A stretch of DNA of 24,590 nt, from IMG/VR virus record IMGVR_UViG_3300035698_025137, positions 1-24,590 of that record. One strand, given 5' to 3'. Shown here one piece after another: positions 4,067 through 24,590 of the stretch; position 1 is the stretch's first letter, and each line of letters opens with the position of its first letter. The DNA comes from a virus. The translations under genes were made by a program, and so were the position numbers. Under the pieces are notes generated by a model. The model did not search any database and had not been told where the DNA came from. It was given only the letters and a program-made list of their open reading frames with translations.

Positions 4067-4923
4067 GCCTAGTAATTGATTTTTCACATCTGTTTTACAG
4101 GAATGTATTAGCGTCGGCCAATACAATTCGAGATTCCGAAAACTGTAATTTGGTAGCACATTTACTATTGAATTCACTATACACCGTTGTCGACCAATTC
4201 AAAGTGTCTGCGGACAATCCTCTTTTTGTAGCGGTTGATTGTAAACGGACTGCTAACTGGCGGTCTAAATATTTCAATGAACATTCTCAAAAATTTCCAG
4301 AATATGCCGGCCTGACATATAAAGGTCATCGTGTGCGGGACACCTCCATTCCTTGGGATGAAATCTGGAAGGTTTACAACGATGTAATTGACTACTTGAA
4401 TGATAGTACCGATGTTGTAATGCTAAAACACGACAATGCGGAAGCTGATGATGTTATCAATGTGTTGTCTCAATTTGAAAACGGTTTGACGATTATATCT
4501 TCGGACAAAGATTTCAAACAATTGATTAGTGACAAGGTACGTCAGTGGGACCCCCTCAAAAAATCTTATGTGGATAAGGAGGACAACTACCTGACGTCAC
4601 ATATTATCATGGGCGACAAATCGGATGGTATCAAGGCAATAGAGCCCCGGGTGGGCATTAAGACAGCAACCAAGTGGGCTACTAATTTAGAGGCATACTT
4701 ACACGGAAAACCAGAACGACAAGCCCGATACGATTTCAATGAAATGATGATTGACTTGTCAAAGTTGCCTGAATGGATCAAAGACGATATAATTGAAGAT
4801 ATAAAAGAAAAAAGAAACGTTGCAACTAAGGCTCGTTGGGACATGCAGGACACAATCAAATTTTATCGTAAATATGGTTTGAGGAAGTTAGCTGAAAAAA
4901 TTGACAAACTAAAGTTCGTATAA
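4063..4923 (+). CDS. rnh: T4-type RNase H / 5'-3' flap exonuclease
   Basis: This 286-residue protein belongs to the FEN/T4 RNase H family, which removes RNA primers from lagging-strand fragments. Metal-site acidic residues are visible at D6 (VIDFS), D59 (VAVDC), E127/D129/D130 (NAEADD), D148/D150 (SSDKD) and D185/D188 (MGDKSDGI). The last is followed by a helix-hairpin-helix-like segment (PRVGIKTATKWA). I start it at ATG 4063 rather than the in-frame ATG at 4051. The 4063 start makes an ATGA overlap with the repaired DUF1643 frame, and residue 4 then begins the conserved VID strand. Its place between the helicase and primase genes fits lagging-strand synthesis. Confidence 0.88.
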   Translation: MSLVIDFSHLFYRNVLASANTIRDSENCNLVAHLLLNSLYTVVDQFKVSADNPLFVAVDCKRTANWRSKYFNEHSQKFPEYAGLTYKGHRVRDTSIPWDEIWKVYNDVIDYLNDSTDVVMLKHDNAEADDVINVLSQFENGLTIISSDKDFKQLISDKVRQWDPLKKSYVDKEDNYLTSHIIMGDKSDGIKAIEPRVGIKTATKWATNLEAYLHGKPERQARYDFNEMMIDLSKLPEWIKDDIIEDIKEKRNVATKARWDMQDTIKFYRKYGLRKLAEKIDKLKFV

Positions 4924-17826: not shown

Positions 17827-18503
17827 TGATAGAAGTAGTTTGCGTAAAATGGGGTGATTTGTATTCTCCCAATTATGTTAATAAATTGTTCCGGGCAGTA
17901 TCTAGGAACACAAATAGGGATTTCAATTTTACTTGTTACACTGAAGATAGAAACGGTGTAGATAAATCCATTAATTGTCACGATTTGCCCGTGAAGGTAT
18001 TGAATGGTTGGTGGAATAAGATGTATTTGTTTAGTAGTGACGCTGGCTTGCGAGATAAGAGGGTCCTGTATTTTGATCTTGATACAGTAATAGTTAATGA
18101 TATCAATGAACTAATGGATTTTACAGGCCCCTTCGGCATCATAAGAGATTTGTATTTCGCCAGACGTAAACCGGATGCCTATGCTTTTGGCTCAGGTGTA
18201 ATGGCCTGGCAAGGTCAAGAATGGACAGAACAGATATGGTCAAATTTCTATGGTGGTTGGGAAAGGAACGTAAGAACGGGCGGAGGGGACCAGAAATATC
18301 TTGAGAAGGTATTGCCTAAAAATAAGGTGATATTTTGGCAAGATTACCTCAAAGAACATAAGTTGATTAGTTACAAAGCACATGTTCGTGATACACCTCC
18401 TACGAATGTAGTGCCAGATAATACAAACGTGGTATGTTTCCACGGAAAACCAAGGCCACATGAAATGGAAACGTTACCATGGATGAAACAACATTGGAAG
18501 TAG
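17826..18503 (+). CDS. GT-A type glycosyltransferase (GT8/GT32-like)
   Basis: This 225-residue protein has VLYFDLDTVIV (80-90), a DXD motif on a strand as in GT8/GT32 glycosyltransferases. NGWWNKMYLFS (60-70) precedes it, and VVCFHGKPRPHE lies near the C-terminus, where a His-x-x-x-x-P metal/donor feature is usual (208-219 approximately). The donor is probably a nucleotide sugar in the cytosol. It is the last recognisable glycan gene. Its 3' end overlaps the first ParB-like gene by 25 bases, so the island and the array appear linked in one transcript. Confidence 0.78.
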   Translation: MIEVVCVKWGDLYSPNYVNKLFRAVSRNTNRDFNFTCYTEDRNGVDKSINCHDLPVKVLNGWWNKMYLFSSDAGLRDKRVLYFDLDTVIVNDINELMDFTGPFGIIRDLYFARRKPDAYAFGSGVMAWQGQEWTEQIWSNFYGGWERNVRTGGGDQKYLEKVLPKNKVIFWQDYLKEHKLISYKAHVRDTPPTNVVPDNTNVVCFHGKPRPHEMETLPWMKQHWK

Positions 18504-18931
18504 AAGAATATCCAATTAGGATGATACACACTAATAAACTACGGTATATGGTAGAACATCCGAATTTTAAAGGTTCGGGAAAATCAAATGGTGGTTTCCT
18601 AAATCGTCACTTGATTTTCCTCGGTCAATTACAAAGGCAGGGATTTGTACGAGGTGTCATTGATGCTCATACCGGCAATGAATCAATGACCTTGACTAAC
18701 AATATCAATAAATGTTGGCAGGATTTTAAGAAACATAATGGCCGCATGATTAATCCTTTAATTGCTAAGGAACATGATGGCTTCTTTTACGTTTTTGTCG
18801 GCAATCAAAGACTGACTTGCCTTAAAGCGATGGGTTTTGAAGGTGAAGTGCCGTTAAGAATTGCAGATAATGATGATGTTTGGACGAGTAATTGCAAACC
18901 TCTGAAAGCACATCCTTATGTCGAAGTATAA
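18479..18931 (+). CDS. ParB/Srx-like domain protein 1 of 5
   Basis: This 150-residue protein belongs to a paralogous set of five. Features: an L-x-Y element near the start (LRYM, 21-24), NPLIAKEH (92-99), YVFVGNQRLTCLKAMGF (104-120; GNQRL at 108-112, similar to the ParB GERR/GxxR loop), EVPLRIA and the C-terminal DDVWTSN (132-138). In ParB proteins the equivalent loop binds nucleotide. I see no DNA-binding helix-turn-helix. It starts inside the upstream glycosyltransferase gene, and the next paralogue begins at ATG in its HPYV codons. Function unknown; a sequence-specific nucleic-acid or nucleotide-binding role is possible. Confidence 0.75.
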   Translation: MDETTLEVEEYPIRMIHTNKLRYMVEHPNFKGSGKSNGGFLNRHLIFLGQLQRQGFVRGVIDAHTGNESMTLTNNINKCWQDFKKHNGRMINPLIAKEHDGFFYVFVGNQRLTCLKAMGFEGEVPLRIADNDDVWTSNCKPLKAHPYVEV

Positions 18932-19352
18932 AATAATTTATGTTGATATATCCGAACTATGTTATAGATGGGAATATGAGCATTATTCAACGCCTTCCAA
19001 AAGGAGTACACGTTTAAGATTTTTTTATACCTTGGAAACCATGATGTTTAAAGAGTTGGAGAAATTGCCTTATCGAGAAATGCGAGAACTCTGGCAATCC
19101 ATTTTTGATAATGGTTTGATTCATCCTCTGGTGGTAAAATTTGTGGAAAATAAATATTATGTAATTACAGGCAATCAGCGGTTGTGTTGTTTGAAAGTTG
19201 CTAAGAGAAAAGGTACGATAACGGGCAAACGTATACCTGTTATTGTTGCATCCGAGGAAGATACTTGGGGTGATAATACCTATCCACAAATTATAATAGA
19301 CGAGATTATCGATAATGATCCAGGGTTTGACACGGGAAGAAAGGTTAGTTAA
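18918..19352 (+). CDS. ParB/Srx-like domain protein 2 of 5
   Basis: The protein has 144 residues. It shares LCYRWEY (14-20), PLVVKF (70-75), YVITGNQRLCCLKV (81-94; GNQRL 85-89) and DTWGDNT (115-121) with its neighbours. Between lie divergent stretches. Its start ATG overlaps the end of paralogue 1 by 14 bases. Its C-terminus is longer and acidic (IIIDEIIDNDPGFD), unlike the HPY-type ends of paralogues 1 and 4. It overlaps the next gene by 38 bases, the largest overlap in the array. Confidence 0.75.
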   Translation: MSKYKIIYVDISELCYRWEYEHYSTPSKRSTRLRFFYTLETMMFKELEKLPYREMRELWQSIFDNGLIHPLVVKFVENKYYVITGNQRLCCLKVAKRKGTITGKRIPVIVASEEDTWGDNTYPQIIIDEIIDNDPGFDTGRKVS

Positions 19353-20214
19353 ACGTAGACAGGATAGAGAAAAGCGCCGTCAATCGTTGCTAGTACAGAA
19401 AACGGTAAACGATCAACGCCGGCAAGAAATGGCTCGACAAAGGGCCATAGCAAATGAAAAGCGAAAGAATGGAGAAATTCCTCCTCTACCTGCTCCCACA
19501 GCGGCAAACCGTAAATCTGCCAGACCAGTTCGACCTGTACAGAATAGACAAAATCGCGTAAAGCAAATTCAACAACCTTTACGCACGAATGCCCGCAAAC
19601 CTGCCAATCTAAGTAAACCTGATCCTCAGAACTATCCGATCAAGTTTGTCAAATTGAAGTTACTTGATTATCGCTGGGCCGCACCAGTATTTGACAGAGC
19701 GAAACAAATAAAATTGCTTAACAGGTTTGCAGATCAAGAAAAGGTACTTTCGCGGGAAGTAAGTTCAAGGAGTAATTCTGTTGAAGCGCGTATGAAGGAA
19801 GTTTATGATTCATTTAATACAACAGGTATGGTGAATCCTTTGGCAGTAAAACAACACCATTATAATGAGGATTTTGATGGATTAAATGATCCACATTATG
19901 TGGTCGTTGGAAATCAACGTCTATGTTGTTTGCGGGTTTTAGCTGCCAAGTTAGGTGTACCTGCCTTCAAGGAAATAGTTTGGAAAAATTTCAAGACTCC
20001 GGCTGAAATAAGTAAAGCAATCGAAACGGACAATATTTTACTTGAGGAAGCCGATCCACTCCAACGTAAAGAACTGAGACTAAAGTTGAATTTGGAAACT
20101 GAAATTGCTTCGCGAATCGCAAGAAGTGTGGATTCCTGGACCGATAGCACTGAACCTGTAAGAGCGGTGCCATACACTTATGTTAACGGATATAAACATA
20201 ATAGAAAAATATAA
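19315..20214 (+). CDS. ParB/Srx-like domain protein 3 of 5, with basic N-terminal extension
   Basis: This protein has 299 residues, twice the size of its paralogues. Residues 1-100 are extremely rich in R, K and Q (REERLVKRRQDREKRRQS) followed by a proline-rich stretch PPLPAP, so likely a nucleic-acid-binding or disordered tail. The ParB-like domain follows: LDYRWAAP (117-124), NPLAVKQ (174-180), YVVVGNQRLCCLRVL (195-209; GNQRL 199-203) and DSWTDST (273-279). A roughly 50-residue charged helical insert lies at 225-270. If the ATG at 19315 is wrong, ATG 19429 would shorten the tail to about 60 residues. The last codons are followed by an endonuclease gene inserted with a duplicated 16-base sequence. 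Confidence 0.7.
   Translation: MIQGLTREERLVKRRQDREKRRQSLLVQKTVNDQRRQEMARQRAIANEKRKNGEIPPLPAPTAANRKSARPVRPVQNRQNRVKQIQQPLRTNARKPANLSKPDPQNYPIKFVKLKLLDYRWAAPVFDRAKQIKLLNRFADQEKVLSREVSSRSNSVEARMKEVYDSFNTTGMVNPLAVKQHHYNEDFDGLNDPHYVVVGNQRLCCLRVLAAKLGVPAFKEIVWKNFKTPAEISKAIETDNILLEEADPLQRKELRLKLNLETEIASRIARSVDSWTDSTEPVRAVPYTYVNGYKHNRKI
20195..20210 (+). repeat. Left copy of 16-bp direct repeat
   Basis: AACATAATAGAAAAAT at the end of ParB-like gene 3. The same 16 bases recur at 21040-21055 in the same orientation. The two copies flank the endonuclease gene, 845 bases apart. The bases just outside differ (A before, A after here; T before, C after in the right copy). Confidence 0.85.
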
Positions 20215-21041
20215 TGAAATATGACATTGAATACGTTAAAAATTATTTTTCCGAAAGAAAATGTTTGTTATTGAATGACAACTATATCAATAACAAACAA
20301 AGATTGAACTATATTTGTAAATGTGGTCGCAAAACTCATACTCGTTTTGATACTTATAAAAGAGGTAAGGGATGGTGTAAGACGTGTAGAAATCGGTCCA
20401 TAGCAAATAGTAAAAAATTGAGTTTTGATTACATTAAAAATGTTTTCGAAAGAGAAGGCTGTACGCTTTTATCTAAAGAATATACCAATAATAAGGAGAA
20501 GTTAGATTACATTTGTAGTTGTGGATTTATATCCAACATCCGTTTCGACATGTTTCAAACAGGTAACCGTTGTTCTAATTGTAAGAGACAGAGAATAAAG
20601 GATACATGTTTAAAAAGGTATGGTGTTGACAATATATTCAAACTTCCAGGAAATTCGAAAAAGGTTGTGGCTTCTTTGGGTAAATGTAAAAGTGTCAAAA
20701 CGCCGTCCGGAAAGATTATTAAATTATATGGTTATGAACCGTTTGCTTATAAGACTTTGCTAAGAGAATATTCCGAAGAAGAGATAAAACATGAAACTAT
20801 AGATAAACCAATTGTTAATTATGTGACGGAAGATGGCAAATCACATAATTATTATCCGGATTTTTTCATACCTAAGGATAATCTGATTGTTGAGGTAAAA
20901 TCCAATTACACGCTATACGATGCGAAATGGATTGAAGTCAATAGATTGAAACAAAAGGAAAGTAAAAGAGCCGGTTATTTTTTCAAATTTATGGTTTTTG
21001 ATAGAAAAGAAAATTTAAAAACAATTTCTTATGAGATTTAA
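20214..21041 (+). CDS. Putative homing endonuclease, Zn-ribbon repeats + PD-(D/E)xK core
   Basis: This 275-residue protein has two tandem zinc-ribbon repeats: residues 3-58 (C35, C37, C55, C58) and 73-123 (C101, C103, C120, C123), each with a FDT/FDM element, likely DNA-recognition modules. A linker has CLKRYGVDNIFKLPG (132-146), a phrase found in many phage freestanding endonucleases. The C-terminal part has YYPDFFIPKDNLIVEVKS with P215-D216 and E227-x-K229, a PD-(D/E)xK nuclease core of the Vsr-like type. It is AT-rich compared with neighbours. The gene interrupts a tandem array of ParB-like genes, and the 16-base repeats suggest recent insertion. The stop at 21041 overlaps the next start. 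Confidence 0.82.
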   Translation: MKYDIEYVKNYFSERKCLLLNDNYINNKQRLNYICKCGRKTHTRFDTYKRGKGWCKTCRNRSIANSKKLSFDYIKNVFEREGCTLLSKEYTNNKEKLDYICSCGFISNIRFDMFQTGNRCSNCKRQRIKDTCLKRYGVDNIFKLPGNSKKVVASLGKCKSVKTPSGKIIKLYGYEPFAYKTLLREYSEEEIKHETIDKPIVNYVTEDGKSHNYYPDFFIPKDNLIVEVKSNYTLYDAKWIEVNRLKQKESKRAGYFFKFMVFDRKENLKTISYEI

Positions 21042-21474
21042 CATAATAGAAAAATCTGATCCGGAATATCCTCTTTACGGTATACCGATTGATGATTTGC
21101 AATATAAACGCCTGGCGCCAAGGGGTGATTATGTTAAAATGTCAAATGAATATTTGAATTGGTTCACCTATATGGAAACTCAGTTACCTAATAGACGGCC
21201 AGATAAGTTCAATAAATGGTATCGTAAAGAATTGATACTTTATCAGGTGTATGACCACATGCTGGAATCGCGTAAGATGTTTTATCCGTTGATCGCAAAG
21301 GAACACCGTAGACACCTTTATATAATTCGGGGCAATCAGAGACTTTGCAGCCTTCGGGCCCTAGGCTTTACCGGCGAAGTGCCGTGCTATTTGGCCAAAT
21401 CTACCGATTCCTGGAACGATAACACAAAAGCTTTTGTAAGGCATCCTTATGGTGACATTCAAATCCCCACCTAG
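21031..21474 (+). CDS. ParB/Srx-like domain protein 4 of 5
   Basis: This 147-residue protein has LQYKRLAP (23-30), PLIAKEH (86-92), YIIRGNQRLCSLRALGF (97-113; GNQRL 101-105), EVPCYLA and DSWNDNT (126-132), ending HPYGDIQIPT. It is closest to paralogue 1 in the GNQRL to GEVP segment. The present start ATG lies inside the endonuclease gene, so the first three residues (MRF) are encoded by endonuclease sequence. Before insertion the gene probably began at an ATG now within gene 3 (20180). Paralogue 5 begins inside its HPYG codons. Confidence 0.75.
   Translation: MRFNIIEKSDPEYPLYGIPIDDLQYKRLAPRGDYVKMSNEYLNWFTYMETQLPNRRPDKFNKWYRKELILYQVYDHMLESRKMFYPLIAKEHRRHLYIIRGNQRLCSLRALGFTGEVPCYLAKSTDSWNDNTKAFVRHPYGDIQIPT
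21040..21055 (+). repeat. Right copy of 16-bp direct repeat
   Basis: AACATAATAGAAAAAT, identical to 20195-20210. It covers codons 4 to 8-9 of ParB-like gene 4. Together with the left copy it marks the borders of the inserted endonuclease segment. Confidence 0.85.
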
Positions 21475-21883
21475 TGAATATGAAATTCGTGAAGTACCCA
21501 TGGCTTGTCTCCAGTATAGATGGAACGCACCCCAGTTCATTAATTGGAAGGGTAAAATACATCCGATGATTCGGAAATTTGCTGAATGGGAGCGAGGTGA
21601 AAAGTACAATGGTCTGATTGAAAGTATACTCAAAACGATTAAAGACGTGGATGGACATGGTTTGGTGAAACCGCTTATAGTCAAGCAAGATAAGTATGAT
21701 GAAAAATTTGACTTTTCCACATACTATGTTATAATAGGCAACCGTCGTTTGTGCGCTTTGAGAAGGAGTGGATACACCGGTACTGTGCCTTGTGTAATTT
21801 CCAAAGATATAGACACCTGGAATGATGCTACCCAAGCGAACAAATATTGGAAACGTATAAAGGTTGAAGGAATAGACAAATAA
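21449..21883 (+). CDS. ParB/Srx-like domain protein 5 of 5
   Basis: The protein has 144 residues. LQYRWNAPQF (21-30) matches the start of paralogue 3, PLIVKQ (75-80), YVIIGNRRLCALRR (93-106; GNRRL 97-101, the most ParB-like of the set), TVPCVIS and DTWNDAT (122-128). The start ATG overlaps paralogue 4 by 26 bases within the HPYG codons. Its stop overlaps the macro-domain gene as TAATG. The group shares an N-terminal L-x-Y-[RK] element and a C-terminal W-x-[DS]-x-[TC]-like element, so each is a full domain and not a fragment. Confidence 0.75.
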   Translation: MVTFKSPPSEYEIREVPMACLQYRWNAPQFINWKGKIHPMIRKFAEWERGEKYNGLIESILKTIKDVDGHGLVKPLIVKQDKYDEKFDFSTYYVIIGNRRLCALRRSGYTGTVPCVISKDIDTWNDATQANKYWKRIKVEGIDK

Positions 21884-22434
21884 TGGAATTAATATACAAA
21901 AAAGGTGATCTTTTTGATGAATTGGCCAAAATTAGAACATATTCAACTTCAAAGATGGGTCTTAGCAAACCAGACGCGATTGCCCATGCCTGCAACGCTA
22001 AAGGTGTATGGGGATCAGGCTTTGCAAAACAGTGTAAAGAAAAAGCGCCGGACGCCTATGAAGTCTATCGAGATTATTGCATAGGTACAAAATTCGACGA
22101 TTACAAAAAGAATGTGTTGGATTCCATGGATATCCGAGGCACTTGTCTACTTACATCCTCAAAGTTAGGACCGGAAATTGCCAGTCTCATAACTAGTGAT
22201 GGTTACGGAAAATTTGTCGATCCTGTTAAGGATATTCTGGCTTATACATACCATTCAGTATTGGAAATGCTTTCCTTGGTGAATCGCGGAGTCATAATTT
22301 GGTCGCCTAAAATTAACTCAGGTTTCTTTGGTGTGCCTTGGGAAAGAACTGAGGAAATCATAAAAATAGCATGTAAGGATTTTCAAAGTACAGAAGATTT
22401 GTCTATTCAATGGGTTGTCTGGGAATTGAAGTAA
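21883..22434 (+). CDS. Macro-domain (ADP-ribose-binding) protein
   Basis: This 183-residue protein has a macro domain of the Poa1p-like type. AIAHACNAKGVWGSGFAKQ (32-50) corresponds to the conserved N-x-x-G-x-x-x-G-G/S-G-x-A region and SPKINSGFFGVPWE (141-154) to the ribose/phosphate loop. Such proteins bind ADP-ribose or hydrolyse ADP-ribose-1''-phosphate or acyl-ADP-ribose. Its start overlaps paralogue 5 (TAATG). It could reverse or read NAD-dependent modification, or serve the phage's own tRNA/RNA ligation. Neither is shown here. Confidence 0.82.
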   Translation: MELIYKKGDLFDELAKIRTYSTSKMGLSKPDAIAHACNAKGVWGSGFAKQCKEKAPDAYEVYRDYCIGTKFDDYKKNVLDSMDIRGTCLLTSSKLGPEIASLITSDGYGKFVDPVKDILAYTYHSVLEMLSLVNRGVIIWSPKINSGFFGVPWERTEEIIKIACKDFQSTEDLSIQWVVWELK

Positions 22435-22835: not shown

Positions 22836-24434
22836 ATGACCGATTTTTTGCCTACTCCTTATCAAGACTTCATCCACAAATCACGTTATGCCCGATGGCT
22901 AGATTCCGAAAAAAGGCGGGAAACCTGGACTGAAACTGTTACTAGATATTTTGATTTTTTCACAGAACACCTCCAAGAAAACCATAATTTTGATTTAACC
23001 GAAGAAGATCGTAAGAGATTGCAAGATTCTGTTCTTGAATTGAAAACGATGCCTTCTATGCGTTGTCTTATGACTGCCGGGCCCGCGCTCAAAAAGGAGA
23101 ACGTGGCCGGGTATAACTGTTTTAGTAAAGATACAGAATTTGTTACTGTAGCTGGAATAAAGTCATTTTCAGATTTTGAAGATGGTGATTCAGTAGAAAT
23201 TTTAGGTGAAAAAACCTTCAAAAAAGCCACAGTAAAACGATTCGGCATTGAAAAATTACATAAACTTGTTTTTACAAAAGGTGGAAAAACAAAAAGTGAA
23301 TGTCTCGTAACTAAAAATCACAGATGGGTTATTATAGAAAACAAAGGAACGGGAAAAATTCGTGTTGAAAAGACAACACTTGAATTGCTACCTGGCGATG
23401 TTGTAAAATATGTTCCTAAGAATATAAGAAATGAAAACCTAGAGCCTTGTAGGATAGGAATGCAACATGGTATGGTTTTTGGAGACGGTACTTTTGATAA
23501 GAGTAAGGGTTACACTAAAATACAACTATGTGGTGATTCTGTTCAATTTGAAAATATTTTTACAACAGGACATAAAACAAATGAAGATGGACAACCTCTA
23601 TTTGTTCAATTGCCTTGGAACTGGAAATCTCTACCAGATATAAAAGCAAATCGTAGTTACTTATTAGGGTTCTTATCGGGATGGTTCGCCGCAGACGGTA
23701 CTATAGGAAAAACAGGTTCCAATGTTGTAATTTCAAATAGTAAAAAGGATAATCTTCAGTTTTTTCGTTCTATCGCAGCAAAATTGGGAATTTTCACGTC
23801 AGATATCAAAGAAAATAGGCGTGAAAATCCCTTTAAGAAAAATGATATAAAACCGATTTATTCTCTTACAATTTACAGAGATACGTTACCTCATAATTTC
23901 TTTTTGAAAGATATACACATCAAAAGATTTGATTCCATTAAGAAAATGGAAAATTTTGTTTGGACCGTTAAAGATTGCCATGAGACGGATTTAGAGGAAG
24001 ATGTTTGGTGTGTTCAGGAACCTGAAAATGAAATTTTCACACTGGCAAATGGCATTCAAACAAAGAATTGTGCCTTTGTGTCTGTGGACCATCCACGGGT
24101 TTTTGACGAAATTCTTTATGTTTTGATGAATGGATGTTTTGAAAAGAATACCTTAGTTAAAACTGATTCAGGTGATAAGAAAATTTCTGACGTTTCCTTA
24201 AATGATAAAGTTCTTTCCTATAACATAGAATATGACAATTTTGAATTCAAACACCCAGAACGTGTTGTAGAGACGCCACACTCAAAAGAAAAGAAAAAAA
24301 TGGAGTTAACTTTTGAGGATGGTACTATTATTAAATGTACTGAGGATCATGAATTTTATACAACTAATCGCGGTTGGATTGCTGCAAAAGACTTAAAGGA
24401 AGATGATGATATTAAGAATTTCCATGAGGTCTAG
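22836..24434 (+). CDS. nrdJ: Class II (B12-dependent) ribonucleotide reductase, N-terminal part with inteins
   Basis: The N-terminal extein (1-94) has YQDFIHKSRYARWLDSEKRR and ETVTRYFDFF, typical of monomeric class II NrdJ, and ends ENVAGYN. The central extein segment 412-433 (CAFVSVDHPRVFDEILYVLMNG) carries the redox Cys region. Intein 1 is residues 95-411. Intein 2 begins at C434 and the reading frame stops at 532, inside that intein. So this frame encodes NrdJ residues for only about 116 extein positions, and the rest must lie downstream of the window. NrdJ reduces ribonucleoside triphosphates using adenosylcobalamin, giving dNTPs without oxygen. SD GGAG at 22824-22827. Intein regions are AT-richer than exteins. 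Confidence 0.88.
   Translation: MTDFLPTPYQDFIHKSRYARWLDSEKRRETWTETVTRYFDFFTEHLQENHNFDLTEEDRKRLQDSVLELKTMPSMRCLMTAGPALKKENVAGYNCFSKDTEFVTVAGIKSFSDFEDGDSVEILGEKTFKKATVKRFGIEKLHKLVFTKGGKTKSECLVTKNHRWVIIENKGTGKIRVEKTTLELLPGDVVKYVPKNIRNENLEPCRIGMQHGMVFGDGTFDKSKGYTKIQLCGDSVQFENIFTTGHKTNEDGQPLFVQLPWNWKSLPDIKANRSYLLGFLSGWFAADGTIGKTGSNVVISNSKKDNLQFFRSIAAKLGIFTSDIKENRRENPFKKNDIKPIYSLTIYRDTLPHNFFLKDIHIKRFDSIKKMENFVWTVKDCHETDLEEDVWCVQEPENEIFTLANGIQTKNCAFVSVDHPRVFDEILYVLMNGCFEKNTLVKTDSGDKKISDVSLNDKVLSYNIEYDNFEFKHPERVVETPHSKEKKKMELTFEDGTIIKCTEDHEFYTTNRGWIAAKDLKEDDDIKNFHEV
23118..24068 (+). other. Intein 1 in NrdJ, complete, with LAGLIDADG endonuclease
   Basis: This 317-residue intein runs from C95 (CFSKDTEFVT, splicing block A) to N411 (GIQTKN). 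Block B is TKNHRW (159-164). LAGLIDADG-type motifs are IGMQHGMVFGDG (207-218) and YLLGFLSGWFAADG (275-288), so the homing endonuclease looks intact. The C-terminal splice region is VWCVQEPENEIFTLANG followed by IQTKN, with +1 Cys at 412. The penultimate residue is Lys, where His is usual. The intein interrupts exactly before the conserved redox Cys of NrdJ (C119-equivalent in the Lactobacillus leichmannii enzyme, by family alignment). Confidence 0.88.
24135..24434 (+). other. Intein 2 in NrdJ, N-terminal half (split or truncated)
   Basis: The 99 residues after VLMNG start CFEKNTLVKTDSGDKKISDV (block A) and contain TFEDGTIIKCTEDHEFYTTN (block B, with the TEDH motif), then GWIAAKDLKEDDDI, and stop at TAG 24432-24434. 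This is the length and content of a natural split-intein N-half. No C-half is present before the window ends. The next in-frame codons contain TAA at 24444-24446 and then GTG at 24447, the start of an endonuclease-like frame. The C-half with the rest of NrdJ should lie downstream. Confidence 0.8.
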
Positions 24435-24446
24435 GACAAATTATAA

Positions 24447-24590
24447 GTGAATCCTATTCCAGTATGGAGTTTGGGTAGGTTGGAAACAAATAAAAAACAT
24501 GGCCAAGATAATGCGTTCTTTGGAAGAAAACACACAAAATCTTCTATAAGAAAGATGCTTGAAACAAAGAAAAATAGAGATGTTTTGAGA
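24447..24590 (+). CDS. Start of a NUMOD3-bearing homing endonuclease (partial)
   Basis: From GTG 24447 the frame reads MNPIPVWSLGRLETNKKHGQ and then DNAFFGRKHTKSSIRKMLETKKN up to the window end (48 codons). G-x-x-N-x-F-F-G-x-x-H is the NUMOD3 DNA-binding motif of phage GIY-YIG and HNH homing endonucleases. The catalytic domain lies outside the window. It begins 12 bases after the intein-2 N-half stop and in the same frame, and no ATG is available in frame. A weak GAGG at 24426-24429 is upstream. The gene is cut by the window edge. Confidence 0.65.
   Translation, partial: MNPIPVWSLGRLETNKKHGQDNAFFGRKHTKSSIRKMLETKKNRDVLR

What the first reader, a model, noticed from the sequence alone, without database searches (positions are those of the whole stretch)
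24135..24590. Fractured nrdJ: intein N-half, stop, then an endonuclease gene in the same frame
NrdJ stops 99 residues into its second intein, exactly the content of a split-intein N-half (block A CFEKNTLV, block B with TEDH). Twelve bases later a GTG begins a NUMOD3-type endonuclease in the same frame. Known phage 'fractured genes' have endonuclease genes between split-intein halves, with the two gene parts joined by trans-splicing. The same frame with two stops (TAG and TAA) could instead mean an old contiguous intein broken by stops. The insertion after VLMNG, where family members continue T-G-V-G-F, may be a different site from the known NrdJ split inteins.
Basis: partly seen in the sequence, partly recalled or inferred. 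Interest (0 to 1): 0.85.

Follow-up and report, generated by a model that had tools for sequence, protein, structure and literature searches.

The report
Split-intein nrdJ with truncated homing endonuclease
A phage gene for making DNA building blocks is broken in two by a split intein, so its two protein halves must join themselves after translation, and the parasitic endonuclease gene that normally sits in the break appears to have lost its cutting half here; this is a further case of a known arrangement, caught in decay.

Summary
NrdJ stops (TAG 24432) 99 residues into a second intein, and 12 nt later a GTG opens a NUMOD3-like frame that is still open at the contig end. The window is a whole virus record, so nothing downstream can be read. 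Relatives supply the rest. Six viral contigs (L001, L100, L101, L111, L112, L114) carry the complete arrangement at the same nrdJ site (LMNG|T-G-V/I-G-F): an N-half ending at the same column, a GIY-YIG+NUMOD3 homing endonuclease gene, an intein C-half ending HN, then the rest of NrdJ. The window is sister to L001. So the split-intein "fractured gene" reading is well supported.

The endonuclease reading needs correcting. The window fragment aligns only to the C-terminal part of those GIY-YIG endonucleases. About 620-640 nt are missing: the catalytic domain and the hairpin/late-promoter leader. The likeliest reading is a 5'-truncated remnant, not an intact endonuclease starting at GTG. One contig (L096) has lost the endonuclease completely and its halves are fused in frame, nested inside the split clade. 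Trans-splicing is inferred, not shown. The site differs from the known NrdJ-1 split intein (NPC|SEI).

The parts
22836..23117 (+). nrdJ N-terminal extein (class II ribonucleotide reductase), up to AGYN
   Evidence: ORF 22836-24434; RNR_Alpha E 1.7e-6; tblastn to phage RNR genes
23118..24068 (+). First intein, contiguous, 317 aa, LAGLIDADG type, inserted AGYN|C; ends ...QTKN
   Evidence: LAGLIDADG_3 E 1e-10 and one of two Intein_splicing stretches; boundaries; L001 lacks it (AGYNCSYVAV)
24069..24134 (+). 22-codon nrdJ extein between the two inteins (CAFVSVDHPRVFDEILYVLMNG)
   Evidence: continues uninterrupted into TGVGF/Y in 37 relatives
24135..24431 (+). Split-intein N-half (99 aa), block A CFEKNTLV, block B CTEDHEF
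   Evidence: 70% aa identity to L001 N-half; nearest solved structure by profile NrdJ-1 8ubs E 4.7e-12; dN 0.21 with saturated dS versus L001
24432..24434 (+). TAG stop ending the N-half, at the same position as in six complete relatives
24435..24446 (+). 12-nt spacer ending in TAA; in relatives this interval holds a hairpin/late-promoter leader and most of a GIY-YIG endonuclease gene
24447..24590 (+). 3' remnant of the GIY-YIG+NUMOD3 homing endonuclease gene (linker W..GRL + NUMOD3), open at the contig end; GTG 24447 may or may not be a start codon
   Evidence: HMM E 1.7e-10 to positions 198-239/283; blastp to L111 45% over fragment residues 1-44, E 4e-12

Best explanation
The phage nrdJ gene is broken at LMNG|TGVGF by a split intein. 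The upstream product (NrdJ N-part + N-half) is made from this contig. The downstream product (C-half + NrdJ C-part) should be encoded just beyond the contig end. After translation the halves associate, excise themselves and join the two NrdJ parts (class 1 trans-splicing); the contiguous first intein must splice in cis as well. The element was once a mobile cassette: a GIY-YIG+NUMOD3 homing endonuclease gene sat between the halves with its own hairpin-masked start and late promoter. In this phage about 0.63 kb (leader, start, catalytic domain) has been deleted and only the 3' end remains, so the element can probably no longer home but should still splice. Shown: N-half, stop position, intact arrangement in relatives, homology of the fragment to the endonuclease C-terminus, missing leader and GIY-YIG part. 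Inferred: that the C-half follows, that it trans-splices, and that the remnant is kept because the C-half's ribosome-binding site and start lie inside the endonuclease 3' end, as in relatives.
For: Complete fractured nrdJ with N-half / GIY-YIG+NUMOD3 gene / C-half ending HN|TGVGF or HN|TGIGF in L001, L100 and L101, L111, L112 and L114. Pfam on the L001 endonuclease: SegE_GIY-YIG E 1e-5, NUMOD3 E 3e-4. Window is sister to L001 in the N-half tree (90/90). N-half is constrained: dN 0.21, dS saturated; codon-position identity 76/87/39 of 99. The fragment hits only the endonuclease C-terminal part, and no GIY-YIG part is found in six frames of the window. Distance from stop to the conserved W codon is 33 nt in the window against 650 (L001) and 669 (L111). 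Leader hairpin with TATAAATA in the loop in L001, L101, L100; window lacks it. C-half start and its ribosome-binding site overlap the endonuclease 3' end in relatives. The fused natural version L096 is predicted as a complete HINT fold (pLDDT 93.7; best PDB match NrdJ-1 8ubs, E 1.2e-8).
Against: The contig ends before the C-half, so neither the C-half nor the rest of NrdJ is seen in this phage. A nuclease domain C-terminal to the fragment cannot be excluded. No splicing data exist. The fragment is short (48 aa), and its NUMOD3 score alone is below Pfam's cut-off.
Confidence: 0.72

Rival explanations
1. The GTG frame is an intact, different homing endonuclease: NUMOD3 at the N-terminus and a nuclease domain (HNH or PD-(D/E)XK type) further on, so this is an ordinary fractured gene with an active endonuclease.
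For: The fragment stays open to the contig end; other fractured genes carry other nuclease types, e.g. L002 at the equivalent RNR site.
Against: Homology to the GIY-YIG endonucleases includes the linker upstream of NUMOD3 and runs to the first residue of the frame (L111, residues 1-44), whereas other NUMOD3 proteins in phages match only residues 17-44. The nearest relative by N-half, L001, has the GIY-YIG form. There is no leader and no well-placed ribosome-binding site before GTG.
Confidence: 0.2
2. nrdJ is a decayed pseudogene: the endonuclease deletion also removed or broke the C-half, and no functional NrdJ is made.
For: A partial deletion and an in-frame TAA are present next to the N-half; the contig ends before the C-half.
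Against: N-half and extein are intact and the N-half is strongly constrained relative to L001; the first intein keeps LAGLIDADG and splice motifs.
Confidence: 0.07
3. The gene is really one contiguous intein; the TAG (and TAA) are sequencing errors or are read through.
For: N-half, both stops and the fragment share one frame; a contiguous version of the family exists (L096).
Against: The stop is at the same position in L001, L100, L101, L111, L112 and L114; the sequence after it is endonuclease-derived, not intein-derived; the L096 fusion lacks the stop and joins straight to the C-half.
Confidence: 0.04

Closest known systems
Fractured genes with split inteins and endonuclease genes between the halves (Dassa et al. 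2009, NAR 37:2560; paper not held, known here through citing papers and memory)
   Same: Phage nucleotide-metabolism gene broken by a split intein, endonuclease gene in the break in the complete relatives, same strand and order; two nrdJ cases were already reported from ocean metagenomes (PMC3653736)
   Different: In the window the endonuclease is only a 3' remnant; in relatives it is GIY-YIG+NUMOD3; I could not check whether this nrdJ site was among the 2009 cases
NrdJ-1 split intein (PDB 8ubs)
   Same: Class II RNR host gene; closest solved structure by profile and by fold
   Different: Inserted at NPC|SEI with Ser +1 (PMC13123727); here LMNG|TGVGF with Thr +1 in relatives, and the NrdJ-1 site is uninterrupted (TNPCSEI) in L001
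T4 I-TevI / SegB / Aeh1 MobE expression control (hairpin masking the RBS, late promoter inside)
   Same: L001, L101 and L100 have a hairpin covering the endonuclease RBS with TATAAATA in the loop, the layout described in PMC2988022
   Different: Here it sits inside a split intein; it is absent from the window
Aeromonas phage Aeh1 split nrdA (mobE insertion)
   Same: RNR gene broken by an endonuclease insertion (PMC2988022, PMC3653736)
   Different: In Aeh1 the two polypeptides form a working enzyme without an intein; here intein halves flank the break

Membership tests
Split-intein fractured gene | Conserved enzyme gene ends in an intein N-half with its own stop | tested here: met
Split-intein fractured gene | Intein C-half followed by the rest of the host gene downstream | not testable with these tools
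   Contig ends at 24590; met in L001, L100, L101, L111, L112, L114
Split-intein fractured gene | Free-standing endonuclease gene between the halves | tested here: inconclusive
   Only a C-terminal GIY-YIG/NUMOD3 endonuclease fragment in the window; complete gene in relatives
Split-intein fractured gene | The two products join by trans-splicing | not testable with these tools
   Needs experiment; class 1 residues C1 and T-x-x-H in the window N-half, D (block F), HN and T+1 in the relatives' C-half
GIY-YIG homing endonuclease (SegE-like) | GIY-YIG catalytic domain | tested here: not met
   No significant match to the GIY-YIG part of the model in six frames of the window; present in L001
GIY-YIG homing endonuclease (SegE-like) | C-terminal NUMOD3 DNA-binding region | tested here: met
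   Family model E 1.7e-10; Pfam NUMOD3 alone below cut-off
NrdJ-1 split intein | Insertion at NPC|SEI with Ser +1 | tested here: not met
   Site is LMNG|TGVGF, Thr +1 in relatives; NrdJ-1 site from PMC13123727
T4-type hairpin/late-promoter endonuclease control | RBS-masking hairpin with TATAAATA before the endonuclease | tested here: not met
   Absent after 24434 in the window; present in L001, L101, L100

The most novel reading that the evidence does not exclude
Gene fracture by split inteins is reversible: after an endonuclease splits an intein, decay of the endonuclease (window: catalytic half deleted) can end in its complete loss and in-frame re-fusion of the halves into a contiguous mini-intein (L096). 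In L096 the intein halves differ by 3 of 396 nt from the split element of L111, a smaller distance than between the split elements of L101 and L111 (5 of 396).
Probability: 0.5. Interest if true: 0.62.

Novelty: new variant of a known kind. Interest (0 to 1): 0.45.

Why it matters
Split inteins are central protein-engineering tools, and their natural origin is tied to endonuclease insertion into inteins. One closely related family now shows four states at one gene position: empty site, split with full endonuclease, split with truncated endonuclease (window), and fused without endonuclease (L096). This makes the life cycle of fractured genes, including its exit, testable by sequence and by splicing assays. 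It also adds a split-intein family with Thr at +1 (in the relatives) and native context LMNG|TGVGF.

Tried and rejected
Looked for the continuation of the contig with an exact 30-mer from its end in viral contigs: none. Cultured phages show no split intein at this nrdJ site in the listed matches. My first gapped alignment of the fragment to L001 (8 identities) was misregistered; the ungapped one gives 18 of 38, so the dN/dS of the fragment printed is not used. Considered sequencing error, stop read-through and pseudogene, and rejected them as main readings because the stop is shared and the N-half is constrained. Dassa et al. 2009 is not in the paper library, so priority for this site could not be checked.

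Full report
What is in the window. The window is the whole of a 24590-base virus record. Its early part encodes a UvsX/RecA-like protein and a DnaB-type helicase, so a T4-like phage replication region is likely. nrdJ runs from 22836 to a TAG at 24432-24434. It holds a contiguous 317-residue LAGLIDADG intein after AGYN (23118-24068), 22 codons of extein (CAFVSVDHPRVFDEILYVLMNG), and then 99 residues of a second intein (24135-24431) with block A CFEKNTLV and block B CTEDHEF. After the TAG come 12 nt that include an in-frame TAA, then GTG 24447 and 48 codons open to the contig end.

What lies downstream in relatives. A scan of viral contigs with the N-half found L001, 70% identical over the whole half. 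In L001 the N-half ends at the same column (DIKNYHES*), a 284-aa gene follows with a GIY-YIG (SegE) domain and NUMOD3, and then an ATG opens a C-half (...YWDMTIPKNNNYVLENGNVVHN) joined directly to TGVGFSVE and the rest of NrdJ. A scan for HN-TGVGF and profile scans with N-half, endonuclease and C-half gave L100, L101, L111, L112 and L114 with the same complete order, plus partial L083, L099 and L135. L002/L003 are split at the equivalent position of another RNR with a different endonuclease-like gene. Thirty-seven fetched contigs have the uninterrupted site. Stop positions agree in all complete copies, to within one residue in L100, which makes a chance error in the window very unlikely.

Is it an intein, and is it maintained? 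The N-half profile's best solved structure is NrdJ-1 (8ubs, E 4.7e-12). A natural fused copy (L096, same contig as L115) is predicted with mean pLDDT 93.7 and matches NrdJ-1 and many other inteins. Between window and L001, N-half codon positions 1, 2 and 3 are identical at 76, 87 and 39 of 99; dN is 0.21 and dS saturated. The half is under strong constraint.

The endonuclease in the window. A profile of the L001, L100, L101 and L111 endonucleases hits the window only at 24447-24590, model positions 198-239 of 283, E 1.7e-10 over 962 six-frame segments. No GIY-YIG part is present. Blastp to L111 covers fragment residues 1-44 at 45%, so homology reaches the first residue of the frame and includes the W..GRL linker upstream of NUMOD3; other phage NUMOD3 proteins match only residues 17-44. 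From the intein stop to the conserved W codon is 33 nt in the window, 650 in L001 and 669 in L111. In L001, L101 and L100 the interval after the stop begins with a hairpin (-23.5, -21.1, -18.3 kcal/mol) that covers the endonuclease's ribosome-binding site and carries TATAAATA in the loop; in L100, L101 and L111 this is the only TATAAATA in the locus. This is the layout described for I-TevI, SegB and MobE, where only late transcripts expose the start (PMC2988022). The window has none of it. The window is sister to L001 in the N-half tree (90/90), and L001, L100 and L101 all have the full gene, so loss in the window lineage is the simplest account. I rate a truncated remnant at about 0.75 and an intact different nuclease at about 0.2; the contig end prevents a decision.

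Why a remnant might stay. In relatives the C-half's start codon and upstream purine-rich ribosome-binding site lie inside the last codons of the endonuclease gene (L001 overlap at 4350-4353). A deletion reaching that far would silence the C-half. PMC2988022 makes the same argument for promoters embedded in T4 endonuclease genes. This is inference.

Mobility. Between L101 and L111 the element (N-half, leader, endonuclease, C-half) is 98-99% identical in DNA, while the N-extein is 77% and the C-extein 84% then 76%. That is the signature of recent horizontal movement of the element between diverged nrdJ genes.

Re-fusion. In L096 the N-half runs in frame into the C-half (...DDVKN-CQRKRNS-MKLVSRK...) with no endonuclease. 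N- plus C-half DNA differs from L111 by 3 of 396 nt, while L101 and L111, both split, differ by 5, so the fused copy lies inside the split clade. The junction sits at a short repeat AAAAATT present at the end of the N-half and near the 3' end of the L101 endonuclease gene, and the former AGGAAA ribosome-binding site reads AAGAAA. This is one contig that begins at the first intein codon, so an assembly fault is not fully excluded.

Known context. Split inteins with endonuclease genes between the halves are known as fractured genes (Dassa et al. 2009; not held), and two nrdJ cases were reported then according to PMC3653736. NrdJ-1 sits at NPC|SEI (PMC13123727), a different site that is uninterrupted (TNPCSEI) in L001. 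The window thus extends a known kind; the truncated endonuclease and the L096 fusion are the less expected parts. I found no description of a natural re-fused split intein in the searches made, which is weak evidence of absence.

Noticed in passing
window 20214-21041: Free-standing nuclease-like gene (Pfam DUF7487 E 1e-26, weak TnsA/PDDEXK matches) inserted among a run of related small genes.
   Followed up: partly
window 18479-18931, 18918-19352, 19315-20214, 21031-21474, 21449-21883: Five neighbouring genes share a G-N-[QR]-R-L-x-C/A-L motif; two match the ParB N-terminal domain. They look like a tandem family of ParB-like proteins.
   Followed up: partly
window 23118-24134: A contiguous LAGLIDADG intein and a split intein only 22 codons apart in one gene; NrdJ needs both to splice.
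   Followed up: no
window 21883-22434: Macro-domain protein upstream of the nrdJ region.
   Followed up: no
L096 (reverse strand): Second contiguous mini-intein further on in the same nrdJ, at KPSG|T-V-S-Q.
   Followed up: no
L120, L123-L127, L131: Other phage genes (an unidentified gene after GGAG, a terminase-like gene, an NrdA/E-like RNR) end in intein N-halves and continue after a C-half, some with HNH or other nuclease-like genes between.
   Followed up: no
Salmonella phage S16 record NC_020416.1 105313-105591; Campylobacter phage CPt10 NC_027996.1 119087-119353: Cultured phages with N-half-like matches in uvsW and nrdA respectively; may be fractured genes open to experiment.
   Followed up: no
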